Shown here one piece after another: positions 37,042 through 50,513 of a stretch of 64,000 nucleotides of DNA. This stretch comes from Ancrocorticia populi (GTDB lineage Bacteria; Actinomycetota; Actinomycetes; Actinomycetales; Actinomycetaceae). The stretch spans positions 62,001 through 126,000 of the forward strand of contig NZ_QETB01000004.1 of NCBI RefSeq assembly GCF_003123745.1. Direction: 5' to 3'. The number at the start of each line of letters is the position of its first letter. Position 1 is the stretch's first letter. Made by a program: the position numbers and the translations under genes. The notes beneath the pieces were generated by a model that saw only the letters and a program-made list of their open reading frames with translations, was not told the DNA's origin and searched no databases.

Positions 37042-37971
37042 CTAGTTTTGAGTAACATAGTCCGGATTCGCAGCAATATAATCCTTGGCGTCCTGAACTA
37101 GATCATCCCACGCTTCCCGTTGTGCCATAAGTTCTGCGCCATATTCATCAATAACCTTCATCTGATACTCGGCGGTAACATCCGCTAACCGCTGAGTAAA
37201 ATCGATCTGATCCTTACACTCGACAGTTTTTATCGCCATTTCAATCTGGTCTTCATCCACAGTCCAAAACTCCACCCCTTGTGGGTATCCAATTGCCGAA
37301 CGGTCAGCGTTCATCCCCTTCGTTTGAAGGCATTCATCGAATTCATCAACAAGGGTGGTAATTCTTGTATCAGTGGATACCTTGTCTGGCACCTCTCCCA
37401 TCGCAACACTGCCCGGCCCGTCCAGCTGTGCAGCTTCGACATCAAACTTGTCTTCGGAAGGTTCTGAACCACACAGCTCCGCGAACTCAGTGCGTTGCTC
37501 CTGAGTGAGGTTTTCGTAGGGGTTGCCCGAGGCGGCTTCTTCATAGTCATCAGGCTTCGGTACGTTTTCATTAAACGTGAGTTCACCATCCGTCTTTGGA
37601 TGGACGAAAGCAAACTTTTCTGCAATCGGCATCGTCCACGGTCCGTATAAGAAAAACACCTCACGCACCTGTTCATACTGGCTCACCGGATACGGATCCA
37701 GCTTGGTGCCGGTCTTTTCATAAACGCATTGAATAAAATTCCCCTCCTTCGCACTATCTACGATTTCTACCTCGTTCTCATCCCATGTCTTCACATAATC
37801 CTCTGGCAAATGAACAGTGGCCTTGTCATAATCCAACTCAGCACTCGGGTTGATACCGCTCACTTTCGGTGTGGCACCACTACCGCCACCGGTATCGTTG
37901 GAACATCCCACCAGACCGATCAGTGCCAGACAAACAACCAATGCAACAGCAACAGACCTCAAAGAATTCAT
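37042..37971 (-). CDS. Cassette A lipoprotein (paralogous family with 46825-47745 and 48708-49658)
   Basis: The protein has 309 residues and starts at ATG 37971 (MNSLRSVAV), with GGGA upstream. A lipoprotein signal peptide ends LIGLVGC. I do not recognise the family, but it clearly matches the two other lipoproteins in this window: after an AELDYDKATVHLPEDY segment come LYGPWTMPIAEKFAFV and then DEDQIEMAIKTVECKDQ and LADVTAEYQMKVIDEYGAEL. It has three Cys after the lipid Cys (positions in CVYEKTGTK, CGSE and CLQTK/ECKDQ). It lies 3' of a secreted I36-like gene, with a hairpin in between. The natural guess is a surface partner or immunity protein for that secreted protein, which is inference. 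Confidence 0.78.
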   Translation of the reverse strand: MNSLRSVAVALVVCLALIGLVGCSNDTGGGSGATPKVSGINPSAELDYDKATVHLPEDYVKTWDENEVEIVDSAKEGNFIQCVYEKTGTKLDPYPVSQYEQVREVFFLYGPWTMPIAEKFAFVHPKTDGELTFNENVPKPDDYEEAASGNPYENLTQEQRTEFAELCGSEPSEDKFDVEAAQLDGPGSVAMGEVPDKVSTDTRITTLVDEFDECLQTKGMNADRSAIGYPQGVEFWTVDEDQIEMAIKTVECKDQIDFTQRLADVTAEYQMKVIDEYGAELMAQREAWDDLVQDAKDYIAANPDYVTQN

Positions 37972-37989
37972 GCGCGTTCCCGTCATTGT

Positions 37990-38020
37990 GGGTGGGAACG
38001 GCTCCTCACCGCTCCCACCC
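37990..38020 (-). terminator. Hairpin between I36-like gene and lipoprotein, cassette A
   Basis: GGGTGGGA (37990-37997) pairs with TCCCACCC (38013-38020), with an inner CGG/CCG and a mismatch. No U-run. It sits at the same place as hairpins in cassettes B and C, so it probably sets the ratio of the two products or protects the upstream mRNA. Confidence 0.55.
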
Positions 38021-38037
38021 CTACTAAACATGTCTAG

Positions 38038-38529
38038 CTATTTACAGTTGGTGCCTGTATGGAATTCGGCGCTCTTGACTCTATTGGTCCAATTCTCAGC
38101 CTTGTACGGCCCAATACCGGCCCCGTTGGCTAAATTCGCATCTCTACTTGCGGCACTTCCATCCCAACTTTCACTCTTGAGGGAGAAGTATCGGTTGTTC
38201 TTATTGTTCCAGAATCGCGTGTACTTACAGCTCTTACCATTTGCTCCAGCTGAATTATGCGTATCCCTAACTGCTGCAGTACCTACAGAGAAAGGACCAT
38301 TAGCGGGCGCTGCCGCCCAGCTACCACCATAGTTACTACTCTTCCATAAACACGCGTATCCTAACGCGCATCCTGGATAGGCCTGAGTGCCGATTTCATC
38401 AGTAATCTCAACCACCGGCGCTGGTTCGGGAGTCGGCTCATCGGCGAACGCAGCAGATCCAGCAAAACCGCTAGCTGCCAATATTAGCGCTGCAAGCGGG
38501 GGGGCTGCTAGTTTTCTAAAAGGTTTCAT
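38038..38529 (-). CDS. Cassette A secreted protein, peptidase inhibitor family I36-like
   Basis: A 163-residue protein with a signal peptide (MKPFRKLAAPPLAALILAAS, cleavage near SAAFA), a Pro/Glu spacer (EPTPEPAPVV), then an approximately 110-residue domain beginning CALGYACLWKSSNYGG. This resembles the I36 family (Streptomyces metalloproteinase inhibitor) and other beta/gamma-crystallin-like secreted proteins. Four Cys in the mature domain could form two disulfides. The ending NGAGIGPYKAENWTNRVKSAEF is shared by all three paralogues here. AAGGA stands 7 nt before the ATG. The activity (inhibitor, toxin, binding protein) is not determinable. A C7 run in the signal-peptide codons is in frame. 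Confidence 0.75.
   Translation of the reverse strand: MKPFRKLAAPPLAALILAASGFAGSAAFADEPTPEPAPVVEITDEIGTQAYPGCALGYACLWKSSNYGGSWAAAPANGPFSVGTAAVRDTHNSAGANGKSCKYTRFWNNKNNRYFSLKSESWDGSAASRDANLANGAGIGPYKAENWTNRVKSAEFHTGTNCK
38498..38504. repeat. G7/C7 homopolymer inside the cassette A signal peptide
   Basis: Seven G on the plus strand, i.e. GCC CCC CCG in the gene, at residues 9-11 of the signal peptide. A parallel 8-nt tract is in cassette C. A change of 1 nt would shift the frame of the secreted protein. Confidence 0.8.
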
Positions 38530-41871: not shown

Positions 41872-41880
41872 GTGAAAAGA

Positions 41881-41918
41881 CTACCGCGGCGTAGGTAGCG
41901 AGTATAGCGAGGCGGTAG
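41881..41918. other. Inverted repeat upstream of panC at the island edge
   Basis: CTACCGC (41881-41887) and GCGGTAG (41912-41918) form a 7-bp stem with a 24-nt loop. It lies at the boundary between panC and the toxin-antitoxin part of the island. It may be a regulatory structure or a junction scar. Confidence 0.3.
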
Positions 41919-42030
41919 TTGAACCCGGCTCCTGATTAGAGCGCACCATAATGGCAGCTGGATGTTGTGACCGTACGCACGGCAGAATAAGCGGATACTA
42001 TGGCTCCCACAAACTATCTCAGACAGAGCA

Positions 42031-42372
42031 TTACTGTCCCTGTTCGAGGTAGTGCTTGAGCGCGGTATTCAACGGGCCAAGTTCGCTGGTAACGACTTCG
42101 CGGAGAACCACGTTGTCCACTCCAAAGTACTCATGAATAAGGATATTTCTCATACCTCGAATCGCTGCCCAGTCAATCTCCGGCAACGCCTGTGTCACAG
42201 AGTCCGGCAGGTGCCGAACCGCTTCACCGATAACCGCGATATTCCGTTCTATGGCATCCACAGCCATATCAGCAATATCAGTGTCCGCGTCGTCAAGGCT
42301 ATCGACGTAGCGCAAAGAGCGAGCGATTGCCGACTGAATGTCGCCGATCCTCTCTTCAACACCCCTACTCAT
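42031..42372 (-). CDS. hepT: HepT-like toxin (DUF86)
   Basis: A 113-residue HEPN-fold protein. The RX4-6HXY motif of HEPN RNases appears as RNILIHEYFG. Typical features are the helical VEERIGDIQSAIARSLRYV and NIAVIGEAVRHLP regions. In known pairs HepT is a tRNA-targeting RNase neutralised by AMP transfer from MntA. It overlaps the upstream mntA gene by ATGA, which is normal for this module. Confidence 0.88.
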   Translation of the reverse strand: MSRGVEERIGDIQSAIARSLRYVDSLDDADTDIADMAVDAIERNIAVIGEAVRHLPDSVTQALPEIDWAAIRGMRNILIHEYFGVDNVVLREVVTSELGPLNTALKHYLEQGQ

Positions 42373-42689
42373 AGAGACACGGCATCCGAAAGAGCGGCCT
42401 GCGATACAGGTTCCCTCAGTAACTCCGGAGAGAAGATATCCACCTTATGTCCGAGGATCTCTCGAAACTCTTCACTTAGCCCTCCAGCACGAAAAAGAAC
42501 GTTCCCCCCGGCCGGGTCCAAGTCCACCAGAATGTCGATGTCGCTCTCGGCACCCGCATCCCCACGAGCAACCGACCCGAACAAACGGGGGTTCGTTGCA
42601 CCGTACTTTTCAAGAACGGCTTTTAGCTCAGCCCAGCGAACTCCAATGAGCTTGCGCAGCGCTTCACTCTCTGGCGTAGGTACGTTCAT
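42369..42689 (-). CDS. mntA: MntA-like nucleotidyltransferase antitoxin
   Basis: A 106-residue minimal nucleotidyltransferase. GSVARGDAGAESDIDILVD contains the GSX10DXD motif in which the two Asp bind metal. The rest of the domain (VLFRAGGLSEEFREILGHKVD) fits the MNT family. It precedes hepT in an ATGA-coupled pair, as in type VII systems. No typical strong RBS is evident upstream of ATG 42689. Confidence 0.88.
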   Translation of the reverse strand: MNVPTPESEALRKLIGVRWAELKAVLEKYGATNPRLFGSVARGDAGAESDIDILVDLDPAGGNVLFRAGGLSEEFREILGHKVDIFSPELLREPVSQAALSDAVSL

Positions 42690-42757
42690 ATTCCAAGGAT
42701 AATGTAGTGGTCCCCGAACTGACAGTGCTCAAATTGAGACACCATCGCGCCGGAGCA

Positions 42758-42852
42758 CTAATCAGACCTCACCGCGATAGCGTGCTGAAGGGTAGCCGCA
42801 CGCATGGCCGGATTCGAGGATGCAACCAGCCCTACAACCAGCATGAACCCCA
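42758..42852 (-). pseudogene. Remnant of a second FtsX/MacB permease C-terminus
   Basis: The minus strand reads MLVVGLVASSNPAMRAAT and then LQHAIAVRSD(stop), which matches the C-terminal end of the intact permease at 43605 (LVASAYPAMRAATIQPAIAVRSD). DNA similarity extends over about 100 bp and slightly past the stop codon. The remnant has no gene body. It marks a former second exporter operon copy. Confidence 0.8.
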
Positions 42853-42867
42853 TCGTTCCTAGTTTCC

Positions 42868-43284
42868 CTAGCGATCAGAAGGAGCCACATACTCGTGCCT
42901 GAGTTCAGAAACAGGTGCTATGTAATCAAAATCGTGATCTGCGGTTAATACCGTTGCATCGTTAGAAATCGCGTACCCTGCAATGAGAATGTCCACTGCA
43001 CCAGCTGCTCTCACAAGTCCGGAATCCCATAACGCACGTTGAATCCCGACAACCAATGATTCTTCCGGCGCATTCTCAAGTGGAAAACCGAGCGATAGTC
43101 TCCCGTAGTAACGGATGTACTCTGCCGGCGTCCGAGCACTGTGGCAAAACTCTAAAACTTGAGGAGGGCACGTGACCATGAGATCGGACGGCGCACGCTC
43201 AATCCTTCTCAACCTTTCAGTAATCGCTATGTCCCCTGAAGAAAGCCTGGCCCAGACAGAATTATCTACAAGGTAATCTGTCAC
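42868..43284 (-). CDS. vapC: VapC-type PIN-domain toxin
   Basis: A 138-residue PIN-domain RNase. It has the acidic residues expected: Asp in YLVDNSVWAR, Glu in VLEFCHS, Asp in GAVDILIAGYA, and Asp pairs in LTADHDFDYI. It is ATGA-coupled to vapB upstream. It would cleave RNA when free of the antitoxin. It is inserted between a permease remnant and the intact permease. Confidence 0.88.
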   Translation of the reverse strand: MTDYLVDNSVWARLSSGDIAITERLRRIERAPSDLMVTCPPQVLEFCHSARTPAEYIRYYGRLSLGFPLENAPEESLVVGIQRALWDSGLVRAAGAVDILIAGYAISNDATVLTADHDFDYIAPVSELRHEYVAPSDR

Positions 43285-43493
43285 TTCTTCCCGTCCGGCA
43301 CAATAACAGGGGCACCAAGCTGTGATTCCAGATCAGCAAGCTCGGCAATACCGGAAATCATGGCGCCCTTCTGCTTCGAAGCGATCAAACGACGCAACGC
43401 AAGGTCAATGACCGAACGATTTGACCTTTCTCCGGTCAGGTCCCTAGCTCGAGCAATCAGTTGAGGATCAAGATCCACACTCGTAAGAGTCAT
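43281..43493 (-). CDS. vapB: VapB-type antitoxin
   Basis: A 70-residue protein: a ribbon-helix-helix-like N-terminus (LTSVDLDPQLIARARDLTG, RSVIDLALRRLIA) and a C-terminal tail likely to wrap VapC. AGGAGG lies 5 nt before the ATG. The upstream spacer holds an AT-only stretch (43511-43530) that probably includes the -10 region and operator of the module. Confidence 0.82.
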   Translation of the reverse strand: MTLTSVDLDPQLIARARDLTGERSNRSVIDLALRRLIASKQKGAMISGIAELADLESQLGAPVIVPDGKK

Positions 43494-43604
43494 GTCAACC
43501 TCCTAATTCCATATATTTATTTATATAATACGGGAATAAGACGCTAAATGTCACTACACCAAGGCGTTCTTCCAGTGTTCGAGTGGCCCCATCGCCCCAG
43601 CACC

Positions 43605-44912
43605 CTAATCAGACCGCACCGCGATAGCGGGCTGAATGGTAGCCGCACGCATGGCCGGATACGCGGATGCCACCAGCCCGACAACCATGCCCAGCACGGG
43701 CCCCAACGCGATCCACCCGGGATTCAGGTAGGCGCTCCAATCGTTTATGGCGGCCACCACGGTGATCACCACGGACGCCAGCGCGGCCCCAGCCAGCCCG
43801 CCCAGCGCCCCGATCAACCCACCTTCGCATAGGAACACGCCACCCACGGAACTGCGAGACGCCCCCAGTGCCCGCCGCACCCCGATCTCCGTGGTCCGCG
43901 CGGTCACCGAAACGATCATCGAATTTGTAATCAACAGGATCGTCAGCACAATAAGAAACGCGCCAACCCAGGTGGCCTGAGTGGTGAGCTGATCGGACAC
44001 GTTCTCTCGAATCGCATTGGGAGCTATCACTTGGGACACGGCCAGCTTCTCCGGCTGCGCGGGCAGGATTGCCAGCCGCGCCACTCCGGATACCTGGCTC
44101 CCCGCCCCCAACTTGGTAAGAATGAGCACCTGACTCTCTGAATCGGAACCCGCAACCTCCACGGCGTTGTGGTACGGAATCACCAAGGAATCGCTGAAGG
44201 AATGCTCTCCGGGGAGGAACCCGATGATCGAATACCCCACGTTGTTCAGGTTCACGCTCAGGCCCCGAGTATCGCCCGTCACGGGGATCCCAAGCTTCTC
44301 GGCCGCGGCCTCCCCAAGGAACGCCACGTTCTGCTCCCCGTCCAACATCCAAGCCATATCCGTTGTTGGCGTGATCTCAGCGGCCTCCAGATAGCCACTG
44401 ACTACCCCCTTGACGCCCACGTTGATGTTGTCCTCGCCGATCACCGGGCGGCTCACCTCGGACCGCCCAAGCAGATCCAAATCCAAGCGCCGCCCCGAAG
44501 CCTGAACGGTATCAATCGCCGCGAGCCGCGCCTCGGTATCGGCGGGCAAAAGCTCCTTCACATCCGCCTCGTCGCCATTCTCATCCTCGCTCGCAGATTC
44601 CTCCGAATCCTCGCTTTGGCCAGGGATGGTAACAAGGACTTGCCGGGTCGCCGAAGCCGCAATGTCCGCGTCAATCTGATGGGCGGCATTCTGGGAAATA
44701 CCCACCGACGCCAGCAGCGCCCCCGTACTAAAAGCAACCGCACTCACCATGAGCACCGTCCGCGACATCCGCGAGGACAGCTCCACGCTCACGTCCCGCA
44801 TCAGGTCCCGGAGCCTTAAAAATACGTTTCCACGTTTGTGTTTACGGCTCCGCCTTTTTCGTTTTGGCTTCGCAGGCGTGTCTTCGTCCAAGATATCAAG
44901 GGGGTTTGTCAT
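43605..44912 (-). CDS. MacB/FtsX-type ABC transporter permease
   Basis: A 435-residue permease: an N-terminal TM segment (VLMVSAVAFSTGALLASVGI), a large extracytoplasmic MacB_PCD-like domain (about residues 75-290, with an acidic insertion SEDSEESASEDENGDEAD), then three TM segments with the FtsX block (TARTTEIGVRRALGASRSSV). It works with the ATPase and adaptor encoded upstream. It is the last gene of a minus-strand operon starting with a secreted I36-like protein and a lipoprotein. The N-terminal 40 residues are very basic. ATPase stop and permease start overlap by ATGA. Confidence 0.9.
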   Translation of the reverse strand: MTNPLDILDEDTPAKPKRKRRSRKHKRGNVFLRLRDLMRDVSVELSSRMSRTVLMVSAVAFSTGALLASVGISQNAAHQIDADIAASATRQVLVTIPGQSEDSEESASEDENGDEADVKELLPADTEARLAAIDTVQASGRRLDLDLLGRSEVSRPVIGEDNINVGVKGVVSGYLEAAEITPTTDMAWMLDGEQNVAFLGEAAAEKLGIPVTGDTRGLSVNLNNVGYSIIGFLPGEHSFSDSLVIPYHNAVEVAGSDSESQVLILTKLGAGSQVSGVARLAILPAQPEKLAVSQVIAPNAIRENVSDQLTTQATWVGAFLIVLTILLITNSMIVSVTARTTEIGVRRALGASRSSVGGVFLCEGGLIGALGGLAGAALASVVITVVAAINDWSAYLNPGWIALGPVLGMVVGLVASAYPAMRAATIQPAIAVRSD

Positions 44913-45574
44913 TTTTCGATCCTCCCGTCGATAAGGTGGAGTACACGATCGGCCCAGTTGGAGATCCTCTCGTCGTGGGTAATAACGACGACGGCGACAT
45001 CTCCCGCCGCCTGCTCATCAAACAGATTGAGAACTGTGCCGGCGTTTTGCTCGTCGAGGTTGCCGGTGGGTTCATCCGCCAATAACACCTGCGGGCTGGT
45101 GAGCATAGCGCGCCCAATCGCCAAGCGTTGCTTTTCTCCGCCGGAAAGTAGCCGGGTCAGGGAATCGCCGCGGTGGTCCAGCCCCACTTGTCCAAGCACG
45201 CGGTCCACCATCTCTTTGCGTTTCTTAAGGGGAATGGAGTTGATCGCAAGCTTCAGCTCAAGATTCTCAATCACCGTCCGGTGCCCAAGCACGTGGTAGT
45301 CCTGAAACACGAACCCCAACATATTGGCGCGGAGGCGATCCCTCCGTCGCGCGGATAGGGACTTGGTTTCTTCCCCTGCTAGGCGGTAGCTGCCGTCACT
45401 GGGTTCATCAAGCAGGCCCACGATGTTCAGGAGCGTGGACTTGCCGGCGCCCGAATGACCCACGATCGCTATGCGTTCGCCAGCCTGAACCGTCAGGTCC
45501 ACACCTTTGAGCACCTCCACGGGCGGCTTGACCGTGTAGGTTTTGCGAATGTCCTTCAGCTCTAGAACGCTCAT
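44909..45574 (-). CDS. MacB/LolD-type ABC transporter ATPase
   Basis: A 221-residue ATPase with Walker A GHSGAGKST, the signature LLSGGEKQR, Walker B VLLADEPTGNLD and the D-loop and H-loop (VVVITHDERI). The LolD/MacB group drives mechanotransmission across the membrane rather than classic import. Overlaps on both sides (ATGA) couple it with the adaptor and permease genes. Confidence 0.95.
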   Translation of the reverse strand: MSVLELKDIRKTYTVKPPVEVLKGVDLTVQAGERIAIVGHSGAGKSTLLNIVGLLDEPSDGSYRLAGEETKSLSARRRDRLRANMLGFVFQDYHVLGHRTVIENLELKLAINSIPLKKRKEMVDRVLGQVGLDHRGDSLTRLLSGGEKQRLAIGRAMLTSPQVLLADEPTGNLDEQNAGTVLNLFDEQAAGDVAVVVITHDERISNWADRVLHLIDGRIEK

Positions 45575-46815
45575 CGGTTCGAAACAACGATCTCATCGCC
45601 CGGCTTGACGGTGGGCTCGTCAAGCACTGCGTATCCTTCGCTCACCTGCTCGACTGTCACGGGCACATGCTTGCCCTCAACCCCGGCCAGCACCACAAAC
45701 GTGTCCGATCCATCCTCGCGCAGCGCGGTCACCGGAACCGCAATACCTGACACGGCCTCTCCCGCCTCCGCGATCACCACAACTTCTTGGTCATCAGAAA
45801 GGCCCTCGGGATCTGCCACCTCCACGGTCACGTCATATCCAGGAATCTCCTTGCCCGCGTCCGGATCAGCCTGAGCAAATTCCGATATGCCCCTCACGCG
45901 CCCGCTAGCCACCTGTTGAGTGTCGCTAGCAGCCTGAACGTTGACCTTACGCCCAGACTTGAAGGAGCCCTTCTCCGCCACCCCCACACGCACCGTGACT
46001 GACGCGCTACCGCTGCGCAGGGTTGCCAGTGGAGTATCCTCGCCCACCTGAGTATTCACACCGGCAACCTTGACCACTGTCGCGCTGCCGGCCGTCAGCG
46101 TCACAAACTCCGAGCGGACCACCGGCACGTATGCCTTGGCGGGCTCCAGCCGCACGGAGGATGTACCACCCGCGGGTCCACCAGCCATACCGCCTTCGCC
46201 GGTGGCACTTCCAGAGTCGGAATCATCGTCCTCGTCAGAACTAGAACTAGTGGATCCACCAGCCTCCTCCGAACTCGCCTCGGCCACTGGATCCGGAGCC
46301 ACCACACCGGCCCGGGTATACATTGCCTTGACCGCTTGGGCGGTGGCCGGACCGTATTCCCCATCTACGGCCCCGCCGTACACTCCAAGATCGCGTAAAG
46401 CCCGCTGGACTTCGCGCACATCCGCTCCTGAATCGCCCACGTAGATGTCCCGGTACAGGTCAAAGGGCAATGCCAAGCCCAGCACGGGACGTCCGGAAAC
46501 CTCGGCCAGCACGCTCCCTGAATACAGGGTATCCCCTACCGATGCATATGAACCCGTAACCACCGGCAAGGAGCCATCGGAAGGAGAAACGCTCACATCC
46601 CACGATTTACCAAGCTTCAGCTTGCCCTTCGATTGGATCATCTCCGCCGGAAGCGTCCGCTCCTCAACCTGTGCCGTGATCACCGCTTGAGACTGAGAGT
46701 TCTCAATAGCCTCCTCATTGGGAGAGCGCACGAAACGCCCCGCCGCAAACGCGCCGGCAACCACGGCCAAACACACCACCACAGTGATGCCGATCCACCA
46801 AAATCTACGCTTCAT
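45571..46815 (-). CDS. MacA-like adaptor with a peptidoglycan-binding domain
   Basis: A 414-residue membrane-anchored extracytoplasmic adaptor. An N-terminal TM (WWIGITVVVCLAVVAGAFAAG) precedes a beta-barrel/lipoyl-like region, a PG_binding_1 domain (VGDSGADVREVQRALRDLGV to ATAQAVKAMY, residues about 128-172), an acidic/Ser-rich linker and a second HlyD-like barrel half. Such adaptors in monoderms connect the FtsX-type permease with the cell wall. The start ATG 46815 is 9 bp after the lipoprotein stop. A 23-codon copy of its start lies at 48387-48458. Confidence 0.88.
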   Translation of the reverse strand: MKRRFWWIGITVVVCLAVVAGAFAAGRFVRSPNEEAIENSQSQAVITAQVEERTLPAEMIQSKGKLKLGKSWDVSVSPSDGSLPVVTGSYASVGDTLYSGSVLAEVSGRPVLGLALPFDLYRDIYVGDSGADVREVQRALRDLGVYGGAVDGEYGPATAQAVKAMYTRAGVVAPDPVAEASSEEAGGSTSSSSDEDDDSDSGSATGEGGMAGGPAGGTSSVRLEPAKAYVPVVRSEFVTLTAGSATVVKVAGVNTQVGEDTPLATLRSGSASVTVRVGVAEKGSFKSGRKVNVQAASDTQQVASGRVRGISEFAQADPDAGKEIPGYDVTVEVADPEGLSDDQEVVVIAEAGEAVSGIAVPVTALREDGSDTFVVLAGVEGKHVPVTVEQVSEGYAVLDEPTVKPGDEIVVSNR

Positions 46816-46824
46816 GTTGTTCCT

Positions 46825-47745
46825 CTATTGGACCGGCTGAAAGGCATCAGGGTTATCAGCAATGTAATCCTCCGCCTTGGCCAACGCCTCATCTTGACTA
46901 TCACGGATCTCCACGAGCTCCTCGGCATACTCTTCAATTGTCGGTGCTTGGTACTCGGCCATAATGTCCGCAAGCTGTTGAATAGAATCAGTAGATTCCT
47001 GACACTGCGCCACCTTCACAGCCATTTCAACCTGATCCTCATCTATCCGATTCGGATCAGCAGCAGTGACAAAACTCGGCGTACTACTGTCAAACGTCAT
47101 CCCATTTTCTTTGTAGCAGGCCGTTAGATCATCAAAAACCTTCTCAGCCCGGGGATCACCAAGCGTCTTCTCATATACTTGGTTAAAATCCTCTTGCCAC
47201 GGCCCGCCAAAACCATCATCAATCCCGTTAAAGTACACGAAATCTGGATCACCAGAGCACTTCTCGATTGCCTCATCCAGTTGGTCTTCAGGAAGCGGCA
47301 CATAGTCATCATTAGCAGACTTAGAATCAGCCGGAGCCCCTTCGATTCCATTAACTACCATATCGGCGTCAGTCATCGGAGGAACAAAGGCGAACCGCTC
47401 AGCCATATCAACAGTCCACGGCCCGAACTGATACCACATGTCATAAACCGGATCGGGATCAGCAGACGAAACCATCATGGGAATACCAAGCGACCGCGCA
47501 CATTTCGTGATCCCGATATCTCCAGCTGTTGACAAGATGGTCAACTTATTCTCAGACAACTGAAACCGATCCGCGGGTAAAACAACCGTACCCGCATCGG
47601 GATCAACATCAGCCATCAGATCCAAACCATCAACTTGATTCAGGCTAGGTGAAGAAGCAGATGAATCACCCGCGTTCGTACTGCATGCACAAAGGCTCAA
47701 GACCCCGAAGACAGCAATAAGAGTTCCAATGGAACGCGCAAACAT
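46825..47745 (-). CDS. Cassette B lipoprotein
   Basis: A 306-residue lipoprotein, start ATG 47745 (MFARSIGTLIAVFGVLSLCAC). It belongs to the same unrecognised family as those at 37042 and 48708: ADVDPDAGTVVLPADRF, WYQFGPWTVDMAERFAFV, DEDQVEMAVKVAQCQ and LADIMAEYQAPTIEEYAEEL. These shared blocks define an N-terminal strand, a central GPW motif and a helical C-terminus. It is the second gene of the operon that ends with the MacAB-like exporter (9-bp gap to the adaptor). I infer a surface partner or immunity role, with the pairing to its own I36-like protein as the main clue. Confidence 0.78.
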   Translation of the reverse strand: MFARSIGTLIAVFGVLSLCACSTNAGDSSASSPSLNQVDGLDLMADVDPDAGTVVLPADRFQLSENKLTILSTAGDIGITKCARSLGIPMMVSSADPDPVYDMWYQFGPWTVDMAERFAFVPPMTDADMVVNGIEGAPADSKSANDDYVPLPEDQLDEAIEKCSGDPDFVYFNGIDDGFGGPWQEDFNQVYEKTLGDPRAEKVFDDLTACYKENGMTFDSSTPSFVTAADPNRIDEDQVEMAVKVAQCQESTDSIQQLADIMAEYQAPTIEEYAEELVEIRDSQDEALAKAEDYIADNPDAFQPVQ

Positions 47746-47765
47746 AAGATACCAATCAAAATAGA

Positions 47766-47800
47766 TAGGTGTGAGGCGGCGGTTAGCCGCCTCACACCTA
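47766..47800 (-). terminator. Hairpin between I36-like gene and lipoprotein, cassette B
   Basis: A perfect 15-bp stem (TAGGTGTGAGGCGGC, 5-nt loop, GCCGCCTCACACCTA) starts 4 nt past the I36-like stop codon. On the minus strand it is followed by TCTATTTTG, so partial termination is plausible. Confidence 0.7.
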
Positions 47801-47804
47801 TTTG

Positions 47805-48230
47805 CTAACAACCGGAGTGGAAGATCGAACTGACTCGATTGTCCCAGTTTTGGGACTTACCGGGGCCGGTCCCCGCCCCATTAGACAGCTTTGGATCCCG
47901 ATAGTTCGATTTCAGCAGTTGCTTGCTATATAGCATGAAGTAAGACGTACTTCCAGCAATACTATGCCCATCGTAATACCTAGTATATTTGCATGTCTTA
48001 CCGTTAGCTGCCGCAGAAGATCCTTGATCATTCAACTTGTCAGCTACTCCTCCTCCATTGTAGGTGCCAAACGATAGACCGTTGTAACTCGTGTCTTTCC
48101 AGATGCACCCATACCCCGAAGTACAGGCCCCAGTACCGGCACTCGCTGCAGGCATTACGACTCCGGAAACTCCAAGCGCTAGCACGGCTGCGAGTACGCT
48201 ACCGACAACACTATGCGTCTTCTTTTTCAT
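47805..48230 (-). CDS. Cassette B secreted I36-like protein
   Basis: A 141-residue protein. Signal peptide: MKKKTHSVVGSVLAAVLALG, ending near PAASA. The mature domain (about 110 aa) starts CTSGYGCIWKDTSYNG, includes NGKTCKYTRYYDG and ends NGAGTGPGKSQNWDNRVSS plus a final Cys. It thus shares the CxxGYxCxWK and GAGxGPxxxQNW landmarks with the copies at 38038 and 49745. A GAAGGGAAG ribosome binding site precedes the ATG. There is no homopolymer in its signal-peptide codons. It is the first gene of the operon with the exporter. Confidence 0.8.
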   Translation of the reverse strand: MKKKTHSVVGSVLAAVLALGVSGVVMPAASAGTGACTSGYGCIWKDTSYNGLSFGTYNGGGVADKLNDQGSSAAANGKTCKYTRYYDGHSIAGSTSYFMLYSKQLLKSNYRDPKLSNGAGTGPGKSQNWDNRVSSIFHSGC

Positions 48231-48386
48231 TTTTACTTCCCTTCAACATTGATGGTATTTGCGAAACTACGCTCCTCTCAGCGTGTTTAAGCACTAAGAG
48301 CCACAATCTGAGATACAAACTGAGTCTTGCGCCTATCAAGAAATCCGTGAGGACTCGTCGAAGCCCTCACTTCTGAGCGCAGCAAT

Positions 48387-48458
48387 TCAGTCGCGACCGA
48401 CGGCCGTGGCTAGACGCACTACAATGGTGATGCCGATCCACAAATATCTACGCTTCAT
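48387..48458 (-). pseudogene. Remnant of the adaptor N-terminus
   Basis: It encodes MKRRYLWIGITIVVRLATAV then GRD(stop), clearly related to the start of the intact adaptor at 46815 (MKRRFWWIGITVVVCLAVVA), with about 55 nt of DNA similarity. Its ATG overlaps the stop of the truncated lipoprotein at 48448. It is too short to work. Confidence 0.8.
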
Positions 48459-48687
48459 CAAATTCTTTCCGAGACTGTGTGAGCTCATCAGCGATCGTTG
48501 GAGCATACCGATCAGAAGGCAGAACCACCATCCCCGCATCGGGATTCACTTCCGCCGTGAGGTTCAGATCGCTCGGAGCTACCGTTTCAGTTGAGGCGTC
48601 GCCTGAATCCGGCGTGGAACTTCCGCATCCCGAAATCAGAACGGCGCTGGATATCACAGCAGCAAGAACAAGCAATTTTTTACGCAT
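48448..48687 (-). pseudogene. Truncated lipoprotein (cassette D)
   Basis: A 79-residue reading frame from ATG 48687: a lipoprotein signal (LVLAAVISSAVLISGC) and TAEVNPDAGMVVLPSDRY, which matches the N-terminus of the family, then an abrupt end (SRKEFDEA) fused to the adaptor remnant. The central GPW and helical C-terminal parts are missing, so it looks like an internal deletion. A GAAGAG site is present, so a short lipopeptide could still be made. Confidence 0.72.
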
Positions 48688-48707
48688 AAAGTGCTCTTCG
48701 ACAACGC

Positions 48708-49658
48708 TCAGTTGGTTGGTAGTTCGAACAATTCCGGATGGGAAGCAATGTATTCCTCTGCTTCCGCGACGGTATCGTCCCATTCTTCGCGAGCCGCAAA
48801 CAGCTCCTCCGCATACTCCTCAATCATGGGAACTTGGCGCTCGGCGATAATATCTGCCGCGCGCTGAGTGAAATTAGTCTGGTCTTTACACTCGACCGTC
48901 TTTAGTGCGAGCGCAATCTGTTCTTCGTTAATGTTGTTAAAGTCGGCGTTCAACGGAAAACCCGGAAAATCGCGATGCATCTCCATGCCGTTTTCTTCGA
49001 AGCACACTGCAAGTTCATCTGACAGTGCCTGCATTTCTGGGTCGCGAATTACAGCCTCTTGTTCCTCATTGAGAGCTTCCTGCCCTGGCCCAATCGTCCA
49101 TAAACGTGTCTCGTCGAATTCCATGACAGCTTCTGTTGAGTTGCATGTCTCGAAGACATTATCACGATCAGCTTCAGCAATATTCTCGTTTACCCAAGGG
49201 ATTGGTTCATAGTCCGCCGGCGGCTCAACTATTCCATTCACAATCAGCGCACCATCACCCATAGGTTCGACGAACGCGAACTTCTCCGCAACAGGCTTTG
49301 TCCAAGGGCCAAACCAGTTCCACATATGCATAGCTGGTATATACGGATCCGGACGCTCCGCTACCCATGGGATATCCAATTCGTCACGTGCACATTGTGC
49401 GACGCGCGCATCTCGCGCAGCACTAAGTGTCGAACTGTCAACCTGCTCGCCTCGAGTCACAGCATCTTCTGGCAAGGTCACGATTGCTGTCTCGGGATCA
49501 ACTTCCGCCGTGCGGCTCAAGCTACTTAGGTCTGGATCAGCGTTCCCATTTACACCACTGTTCGGCTGGTCTGTTGGCGTTCCTCCACACCCAGCAACGA
49601 ACAGGACCAAGAGTATTACACACGCCACAAGCCTTGCTTCAATTGGATGCCTCATCAT
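48708..49658 (-). CDS. Cassette C lipoprotein
   Basis: A 316-residue lipoprotein (signal VACVILLVLFVAGC) with the family blocks AEVDPETAIVTLPEDA, WNWFGPWTKPVAEKFAFV, NEEQIALALKTVECKDQ and ADIIAERQVPMIEEYAEEL. It is most like the cassette A copy in the C-terminal ECKDQ-x-xFTQR segment. The start ATG 49658 follows AAGGAGGAAC, the strongest ribosome binding site among the copies. The next gene is only the truncated lipoprotein, so no intact exporter follows this copy. Function unknown; partner of the upstream I36-like gene by position. Confidence 0.78.
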   Translation of the reverse strand: MMRHPIEARLVACVILLVLFVAGCGGTPTDQPNSGVNGNADPDLSSLSRTAEVDPETAIVTLPEDAVTRGEQVDSSTLSAARDARVAQCARDELDIPWVAERPDPYIPAMHMWNWFGPWTKPVAEKFAFVEPMGDGALIVNGIVEPPADYEPIPWVNENIAEADRDNVFETCNSTEAVMEFDETRLWTIGPGQEALNEEQEAVIRDPEMQALSDELAVCFEENGMEMHRDFPGFPLNADFNNINEEQIALALKTVECKDQTNFTQRAADIIAERQVPMIEEYAEELFAAREEWDDTVAEAEEYIASHPELFELPTN

Positions 49659-49680
49659 AGCTGTTCCTCCTTCAAGAAAG

Positions 49681-49721
49681 GAATTGTGGGCTCAGCCAGT
49701 ACTCGCCTGAGCCCACAATTC
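49681..49721 (-). terminator. Hairpin between I36-like gene and lipoprotein, cassette C
   Basis: A perfect 15-bp stem (GAATTGTGGGCTCAG, 11-nt loop, CTGAGCCCACAATTC), 23 nt past the I36-like stop. It resembles those in A and B by position but not by sequence. Confidence 0.7.
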
Positions 49722-49744
49722 ATAGGCTTTAGACCGTTAATTTG

Positions 49745-50237
49745 TCAGACGCAGTTTGCTCCTTGAAAGAATCGAATATATCTGATGCGATCTTTCCAAT
49801 TTTGACCGTTGTATGGCCCGGTTCCAGCACCATTGGCGAGATTAGGATCGCGATAATTGGTTCCAATCCTTGTTTGGCTATCGAGAATGAAGTATGGATT
49901 GTTATCAAACGGGCCAGTTCGGAAACTCGTTCTGTGACAAGAATTTCCATTCGCCCAAGCTGAATTGGATGTAGTCATTGATACGACGCCATTATATTGC
50001 CGTGCATCCCATGTTCCGCCATAATTGTTGTTCCTCCAAATACACCCCCATCCCAGCGCACAACTAGCTGCTAACGGCGATATCTCGCCGTTTGAGTCGG
50101 TCTCGATACTGACTGCCGTTGGTTCTGGAATGTTGCCGTCGCTACTTTCATCCGCCTGAACGGCGGTGCCAAACAACCCGCTGACCGCTAATGCGAGAGT
50201 TGCAAGCCCCCCCCATCCAACTTTTCCTGCTACTCAT
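49745..50237 (-). CDS. Cassette C secreted I36-like protein, out of frame at a poly-C tract
   Basis: From ATG 50237 (AAGGA 6 nt upstream) the frame reads MSSRKSWMGG and then breaks at a G8 tract (C8 on the plus strand, 50207-50214). Ribosomes would stop after about 29 codons. With one G fewer the same mRNA gives MSSRKSWMGGLATLALAVSG and then LFGTAVQA, a complete signal peptide, and continues into the mature domain CALGWGCIWRNNNYGG ... NGAGTGPYNGQNWKDR (163 residues in total). The only in-frame start for the current sequence is TTG 50176, which would lack the signal peptide. I infer a phase-off allele or an error in the tract. Confidence 0.72.
50207..50214. repeat. C8/G8 homopolymer in the cassette C signal peptide
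   Basis: Eight consecutive C on the plus strand at codons 8-11 of the I36-like gene. Seven (or ten) would restore the frame. See the parallel 7-nt tract at 38498-38504. Confidence 0.85.
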
Positions 50238-50513
50238 GAGAGATCCTTCTGTTTTATTGGTGGTAGCTCCTCACCATTAAGAAGCTAAAACCAACACTAG
50301 TGGCAGCGGGGTGACTTGCACAACAACATCAGTAGGGGTGTCCGGCGTTACCGATTACAAGCCGTTCCAAAACCGACAGCTTTTTTCACTTTGGTCCTTA
50401 GGTCCCACACACCCCGACACTATCGGACCATGTTCGGAATAAGTCGTGCTAGTCCACCAACGGACCAACCCATTACAATGCTGATTGGAACGATGCTCGA
50501 ATCGTCGGAACCT
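50238..50513. other. Upstream region of cassette C
   Basis: A 276-bp spacer between the I36-like gene and the DUF2520 gene end; it marks the right edge of the island. No gene is visible. It must hold the promoter of the cassette C transcript. Confidence 0.35.

What the first reader, a model, noticed from the sequence alone, without database searches (positions are those of the whole stretch)
42738..48687. Remnants of a second exporter operon flank the intact one
A permease C-terminal remnant (42758-42852; IAVRSD-stop shared with the intact gene) lies downstream, and an adaptor N-terminal remnant (48387-48458) fused to a truncated lipoprotein (48448-48687) lies upstream. Together they look like the two ends of an older lipoprotein-adaptor-ATPase-permease operon whose middle was replaced or into which the B operon plus VapBC recombined. 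It shows modular turnover of this system by homologous recombination.
Basis: seen in the sequence. Interest (0 to 1): 0.64.

Follow-up and report, generated by a model that had tools for sequence, protein, structure and literature searches.

The report
Displaced ends of a bacterial exporter operon
Next to an intact set of membrane-export genes lie two short, decaying pieces of the same genes' outer ends, left when new gene modules were slotted into an older copy, which shows how such gene islands are built and rebuilt.

Summary
Both remnants are real. 42742-42840 matches the permease 3' end and flank (99 bp, 88%); 48396-48458 matches the first 21 adaptor codons (core 51 bp, 82%). Both score far above shuffles; the lipoprotein stub does so more weakly. 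The permease stub is nearer to the window's own permease than to any relative's and has changed residues invariant elsewhere, so it is a decaying copy. The older operon continues upstream into I36A-lipA; I36A is out of frame at a run of eight G, and only lipA is intact. The island (41872-50513) sits between a DUF2520 gene and panC, which adjoin in 8 of 10 relatives checked. 'Homologous recombination' is too simple: ordinary replacement leaves no duplicated ends, so one-sided, illegitimate joining fits better. A full second exporter is possible but not required. A separate decayed operon in a relative (G080) shows that such decay recurs. The system resembles a secreted effector with immunity lipoproteins; its function is untested.

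The parts
49745..50236 (-). I36A: small secreted I36-like protein gene of the older operon; the ATG and the mature part lie in different frames, switched at a run of eight G at 50207-50214
   Evidence: 49% identity to I36D
49681..49721 (-). strong hairpin between I36A and lipA
   Evidence: z -5.1; I11
48708..49658 (-). lipA: intact lipoprotein of the older operon, 49-62% identical to the three G057 lipoproteins
48448..48687 (-). lipC stub: lipoprotein N-terminus (about 53 residues), then apparently an internal deletion to a short C-terminal piece
48387..48458 (-). adaptor stub: codons 1-21 of the adaptor, then unrelated sequence and a stop
47805..48230 (-). I36B: intact small secreted protein with a Peptidase inhibitor I36 domain
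   Evidence: Pfam PF03995, 26.5 bits, cut-off 21.1
47765..47801 (-). terminator-like hairpin between I36B and lipB
   Evidence: (z -7.4)
46825..47745 (-). lipB: intact lipoprotein of operon B
45571..46815 (-). adaptor with a peptidoglycan-binding domain (PF01471), intact copy
44909..45574 (-). ABC ATPase; nearest NCBIfam models are L_ocin_972_ABC and LolD, both below cut-off
43605..44912 (-). permease with MacB_PCD and FtsX domains, intact copy
42868..43493 (-). VapBC toxin-antitoxin pair, lying between the permease end and the permease stub
   Evidence: independent copies in G007, G162, G188
42742..42852 (-). permease stub: last 27-29 codons, stop and downstream flank
42031..42689 (-). MntA/HepT-like toxin-antitoxin pair next to the permease stub
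   Evidence: (below cut-off)
41872..50513 (.). whole island, between the DUF2520 gene and panC, which adjoin in 8 of 10 relatives checked

Best explanation
The island once held one operon: I36A-lipA-lipC-adaptor-ATPase-permease. Incoming DNA carrying I36B-lipB upstream of an exporter and VapBC downstream of one was joined into it. The resident adaptor's first 21 codons were left on the upstream side and the resident permease's last 29 codons on the downstream side, where both are now decaying. This may have been one event (the resident exporter replaced together with its flanking cargo) or two (I36B-lipB inserted at the adaptor edge, VapBC at the permease edge). The joins were probably one-sided: an anchor of homology in the exporter and an illegitimate join at the far end. 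Shown: the pieces, their homology, the decay of the permease piece, the empty site, the patchy distribution. Inferred: the order of events and the joining mechanism. The system the remnants belong to most likely makes a small secreted effector-like protein (I36), with lipoproteins that may act as immunity or partner proteins and a MacB-type ABC exporter; that function is an inference (about 0.4).
For: The stubs are exactly the two outer edges of the exporter, and each lies against a cargo module: I36B-lipB between two adaptor 5' ends, VapBC between two permease 3' ends. The permease stub is 90% identical to the window permease over the last 84 nt and 55-68% to others, while the intact gene is 61-75% to those others, so the excess change is on the stub. 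The stub has SSNP for the invariant SAYP and H for the invariant P before A-I/L-A-V-R. Third-position GC is 44-51% in I36 and lipoprotein genes and 45-49% in VapBC, against 65-74% in the exporter and 61-73% in the neighbouring core genes, with steps at the exporter's two edges. VapBC occurs in relatives without a close copy of this exporter. Empty site DUF2520-panC in 8 of 10 relatives. One-sided joining with a displaced 3' end is the published model for Vibrio T6SS immunity arrays (PMC5361080).
Against: No closer relative is held: G000 is the only genome of its genus here, so no intermediate was seen. The stubs total about 150 coding bases. The two stubs cannot be shown to be of one age (15 differences in 63 nt and 11 in 87 nt; scaled to G057, p 0.33). 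A decayed second copy does exist in G080, apart from its main operon, so a true second exporter is possible here too. I36 and lipoprotein genes are also lower in GC than the exporter in G057, so composition alone does not prove foreign origin.
Confidence: 0.6

Rival explanations
1. Two or more complete operons once lay in tandem (duplication or repeated acquisition). Separate deletions trimmed one down to I36A-lipA-lipC'-adaptor' and another down to the permease stub, leaving B intact between them.
For: G080 carries a second, separately decayed operon whose middle is deleted: I36', lipoprotein', adaptor residues 35-68, permease residues 353-435. Lipoprotein arrays expand and contract widely.
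Against: Needs an adaptor stub upstream and a permease stub downstream of B, hence three copies or nested deletions; no piece of a second inner adaptor or inner permease was found in G000.
Confidence: 0.25
2. The two stubs are unrelated events: the permease stub comes from VapBC inserting at the permease 3' end, and the adaptor stub from a local duplication of lipoprotein-adaptor sequence; no older operon was interrupted as a whole.
For: VapBC is portable and sits tightly between the two permease ends; the ages of the stubs cannot be equated.
Against: I36A-lipA-lipC'-adaptor' keeps the normal operon order with lipA closest to the G057 operon's lipoproteins, which points to an older operon rather than a local duplication.
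Confidence: 0.12
3. The similarities are chance or belong to other gene families.
For: The pieces are short.
Against: E 7e-34 and 1e-10; scores 138 and 57 against at most 29 in 300 shuffles; in frame, same order and same strand as the parent genes.
Confidence: 0.01

Closest known systems
Vibrio cholerae T6SS effector-immunity arrays built by sequential displacement (PMC5361080)
   Same: New cargo modules pushed in beside a conserved core, old partner genes kept, a displaced 3' end left behind, one-sided homology proposed as the mechanism.
   Different: Here the core is an ABC exporter with a PG-binding adaptor; effector and immunity roles are not shown; the displaced pieces are exporter ends.
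Lactococcin 972-type bacteriocin loci (for example scbABC, PMC11796350)
   Same: Small secreted protein followed by further genes and an ABC ATPase; the ATPase's best NCBIfam match is L_ocin_972_ABC.
   Different: ATPase scores 203 against a cut-off of 255; no lactococcin 972 family match for the I36-like proteins; lipoprotein arrays and an adaptor are present.
MacAB-type ABC exporters
   Same: Adaptor, ATPase and a permease with MacB_PCD and FtsX domains.
   Different: Separate ATPase and permease genes; the adaptor carries a peptidoglycan-binding domain; lipoprotein and I36 genes lie directly upstream in most loci seen here.

Membership tests
MacB-type ABC exporter | MacB_PCD and FtsX domains in the permease | tested here: met
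   PF12704 45.2 bits, PF02687 60.1 bits, both over cut-off
MacB-type ABC exporter | drives export of a substrate | not testable with these tools
   needs experiment
Lactococcin 972 bacteriocin system | ATPase over the L_ocin_972_ABC cut-off | tested here: not met
   203.2 against 254.85 bits
Lactococcin 972 bacteriocin system | lactococcin 972 family peptide | tested here: not met
   no such match for I36A, I36B or I36D
Peptidase inhibitor family I36 | PF03995 over the gathering score | tested here: inconclusive
   met by I36B (26.5, cut-off 21.1), no match for I36A; I36D not scanned against Pfam but aligns with both
Effector-immunity displacement array | old partner genes kept while cargo is renewed | tested here: inconclusive
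   each I36 gene in the loci read is followed by a lipoprotein gene, and lipoproteins outnumber I36 genes in most; lipA is intact while I36A is out of frame
Effector-immunity displacement array | secreted protein is toxic and the lipoprotein protects | not testable with these tools
   needs experiment
VapBC toxin-antitoxin | PIN toxin with VapB antitoxin in one operon | tested here: met
   PF01850 31.0 and PF09957 31.8 bits, over cut-off
MntA/HepT type VII toxin-antitoxin | curated NCBIfam cut-offs | tested here: not met
   33.7 and 31.6 bits against 60

The most novel reading that the evidence does not exclude
An undescribed family of I36-like secreted effectors with arrays of immunity lipoproteins served by one MacB-type exporter, whose edges act as repeated landing sites for new modules, with some effector genes switched by G or C runs in the signal-peptide region.
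Probability: 0.2. Interest if true: 0.65.

Novelty: new member of a known kind. Interest (0 to 1): 0.4.

Why it matters
The stubs are a trace of how an export island is rebuilt: cargo is renewed at the exporter's edges while the exporter type stays. If the I36-lipoprotein pairs are effector and immunity, this carries the displacement model known from type VI secretion to an ABC-export system in another part of the bacterial tree, with a ready set of arrays for comparison.

Tried and rejected
The single genome-contig scan gave only a distant hit; the genus has no other genome here. PDB sequence searches found nothing useful for I36 or the lipoprotein. The I36 model was too poor to use (pLDDT 35); the lipoprotein model (pLDDT 61) gave no credible PDB match. 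Only one plasmid record has a relative of the permease, at 30%. Adaptor stubs were sought in the other arrays and not found. Frame breaks seen in the G057 and G071 permeases are not at long single-base runs, so a general switching mechanism was not claimed. No paper on I36 proteins as bacteriocins was found.

Full report
Observation. The remnants were tested by alignment. The permease piece 42742-42840 matches 43589-43687 over 99 bp at 88% (E 7e-34); the adaptor piece 48408-48458 matches 46765-46815 over 51 bp at 82% (E 1e-10). Against the B operon their scores are 138 and 57, where 300 dinucleotide shuffles reach at most 29; the lipoprotein piece scores 40 against at most 30. In the whole genome the permease piece has one strong match besides itself, the intact permease end. 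The lipoprotein piece is recognised by a profile of 16 related lipoproteins at E 5.7e-11.

What the pieces are. The permease piece holds the last 27-29 codons, the stop and a downstream flank whose weak similarity runs about 40 nt further. Over the last 84 nt it is 90% identical to the window permease but 55-68% to those of relatives; the intact gene is 61-75% to the same relatives. Nearly all the extra change is therefore on the stub, and some of it falls on residues invariant in fourteen other permease ends (SAYP to SSNP, and the P before A-I/L-A-V-R to H). It is a decaying copy. The adaptor piece ends at about codon 21. The lipoprotein piece keeps the lipobox and about 53 residues, then seems to jump to a C-terminal segment, and overlaps the adaptor start by 11 nt in another frame, so it is not a fusion.

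The older operon goes further than the finding says. Upstream lie lipA, intact, and I36A. I36A's ATG and its mature part are in different frames, switched at a run of eight G. So of the older operon only lipA is whole. lipA groups with the three lipoproteins of G057, whose operon is I36-lip-lip-lip-adaptor-ATPase-permease.

Surroundings. The island 41872-50513 lies between a DUF2520 gene and panC (named by position and recalled annotation; the synteny itself is). Of ten relatives with the DUF2520 gene, eight have panC directly beside it. Among 213 family genomes 13, the window's own included, have a strong adaptor match (E below 1e-30), and the exporter lies beside other genes in other genera. 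Arrays hold up to 6 lipoproteins and 0 to 2 I36 genes. Every I36 gene in the loci read is followed by a lipoprotein gene on the same strand. Relatives of the lipoproteins occur in 28 of 396 genomes sampled from the order.

How it came about. I36B-lipB lies between two adaptor 5' ends and VapBC between two permease 3' ends. GC at third positions steps at both exporter edges: 44-51% in I36 and lipoprotein genes, 45-49% in VapBC, 65-74% in the exporter. VapBC occurs as a pair in three relatives without a close copy of this exporter. Ordinary homologous recombination between two such operons would leave single genes, not duplicated ends (inference). One-sided joining, with a homologous anchor and an illegitimate far end, does leave displaced ends and is the mechanism proposed for Vibrio T6SS arrays (PMC5361080). 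The data do not say whether one event or two occurred: the stubs show 15 differences in 63 nt and 11 in 87 nt, which scaled to G057 do not differ significantly (p 0.33). Tandem copies trimmed by deletion remain possible; G080 has a separate second operon that decayed with its middle missing.

Recombination in the wider family. In relatives' arrays, lipoprotein pairs of one genome that share 36-56% in residues 40-210 share on average 73-82% in residues 225-312, against 47-67% for cross-genus pairs of like N-terminal identity (few such pairs). Some pairs are identical over 50 residues near the C-terminus. This fits exchange or conversion of the C-terminal part within arrays. The window's three lipoproteins show no such recent sharing.

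Function. The permease is of the MacB type, the ATPase is nearest to the lactococcin 972 and LolD ATPase models but under both cut-offs, and I36B has an I36 domain. Strong hairpins follow I36A and I36B (z -5.1 and -7.4), and also I36D and the G057 gene, though not most of the others; this is as expected where a secreted product is made in excess of what follows. Effector with immunity lipoprotein is my preferred reading (about 0.4), untested.

Verdict. Observation confirmed; interpretation right in outline, with the mechanism and the need for a full second exporter open.

Noticed in passing
window 50207-50214 and 38498-38504: The only G or C runs of seven or more in the 64 kb window lie in the signal-peptide regions of I36A (eight, out of frame) and I36D (seven, in frame); first-order random sequences give about ten such runs. 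It could mean switching, a broken gene or an assembly error.
   Followed up: partly
window 37042-38529: A third I36-lipoprotein pair (I36D-lipD) lies downstream of lysS, away from the exporter.
   Followed up: partly
L055 9126-10716 (G080): An independently decayed second operon: I36, lipoprotein, adaptor and permease pieces with the middle missing.
   Followed up: yes
L057, L053, L051, L058 lipoprotein arrays: Lipoproteins of one array are nearly identical at the C-terminus and diverse elsewhere.
   Followed up: yes
L064 8268-10183 and L061 8761-9812: The permeases of G057 and G071 are broken by frame changes, G071 also by a deletion.
   Followed up: partly
L060 5430-7275 and 10778-12506 (G091): Genes that look, by eye, like response regulators and histidine kinases flank the exporter; no family search was run on them.
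   Followed up: no
window 42031-42689: MntA/HepT-like toxin-antitoxin pair beside the permease stub; the MntA-like protein also matches PADLOC PDC-S09.
   Followed up: partly
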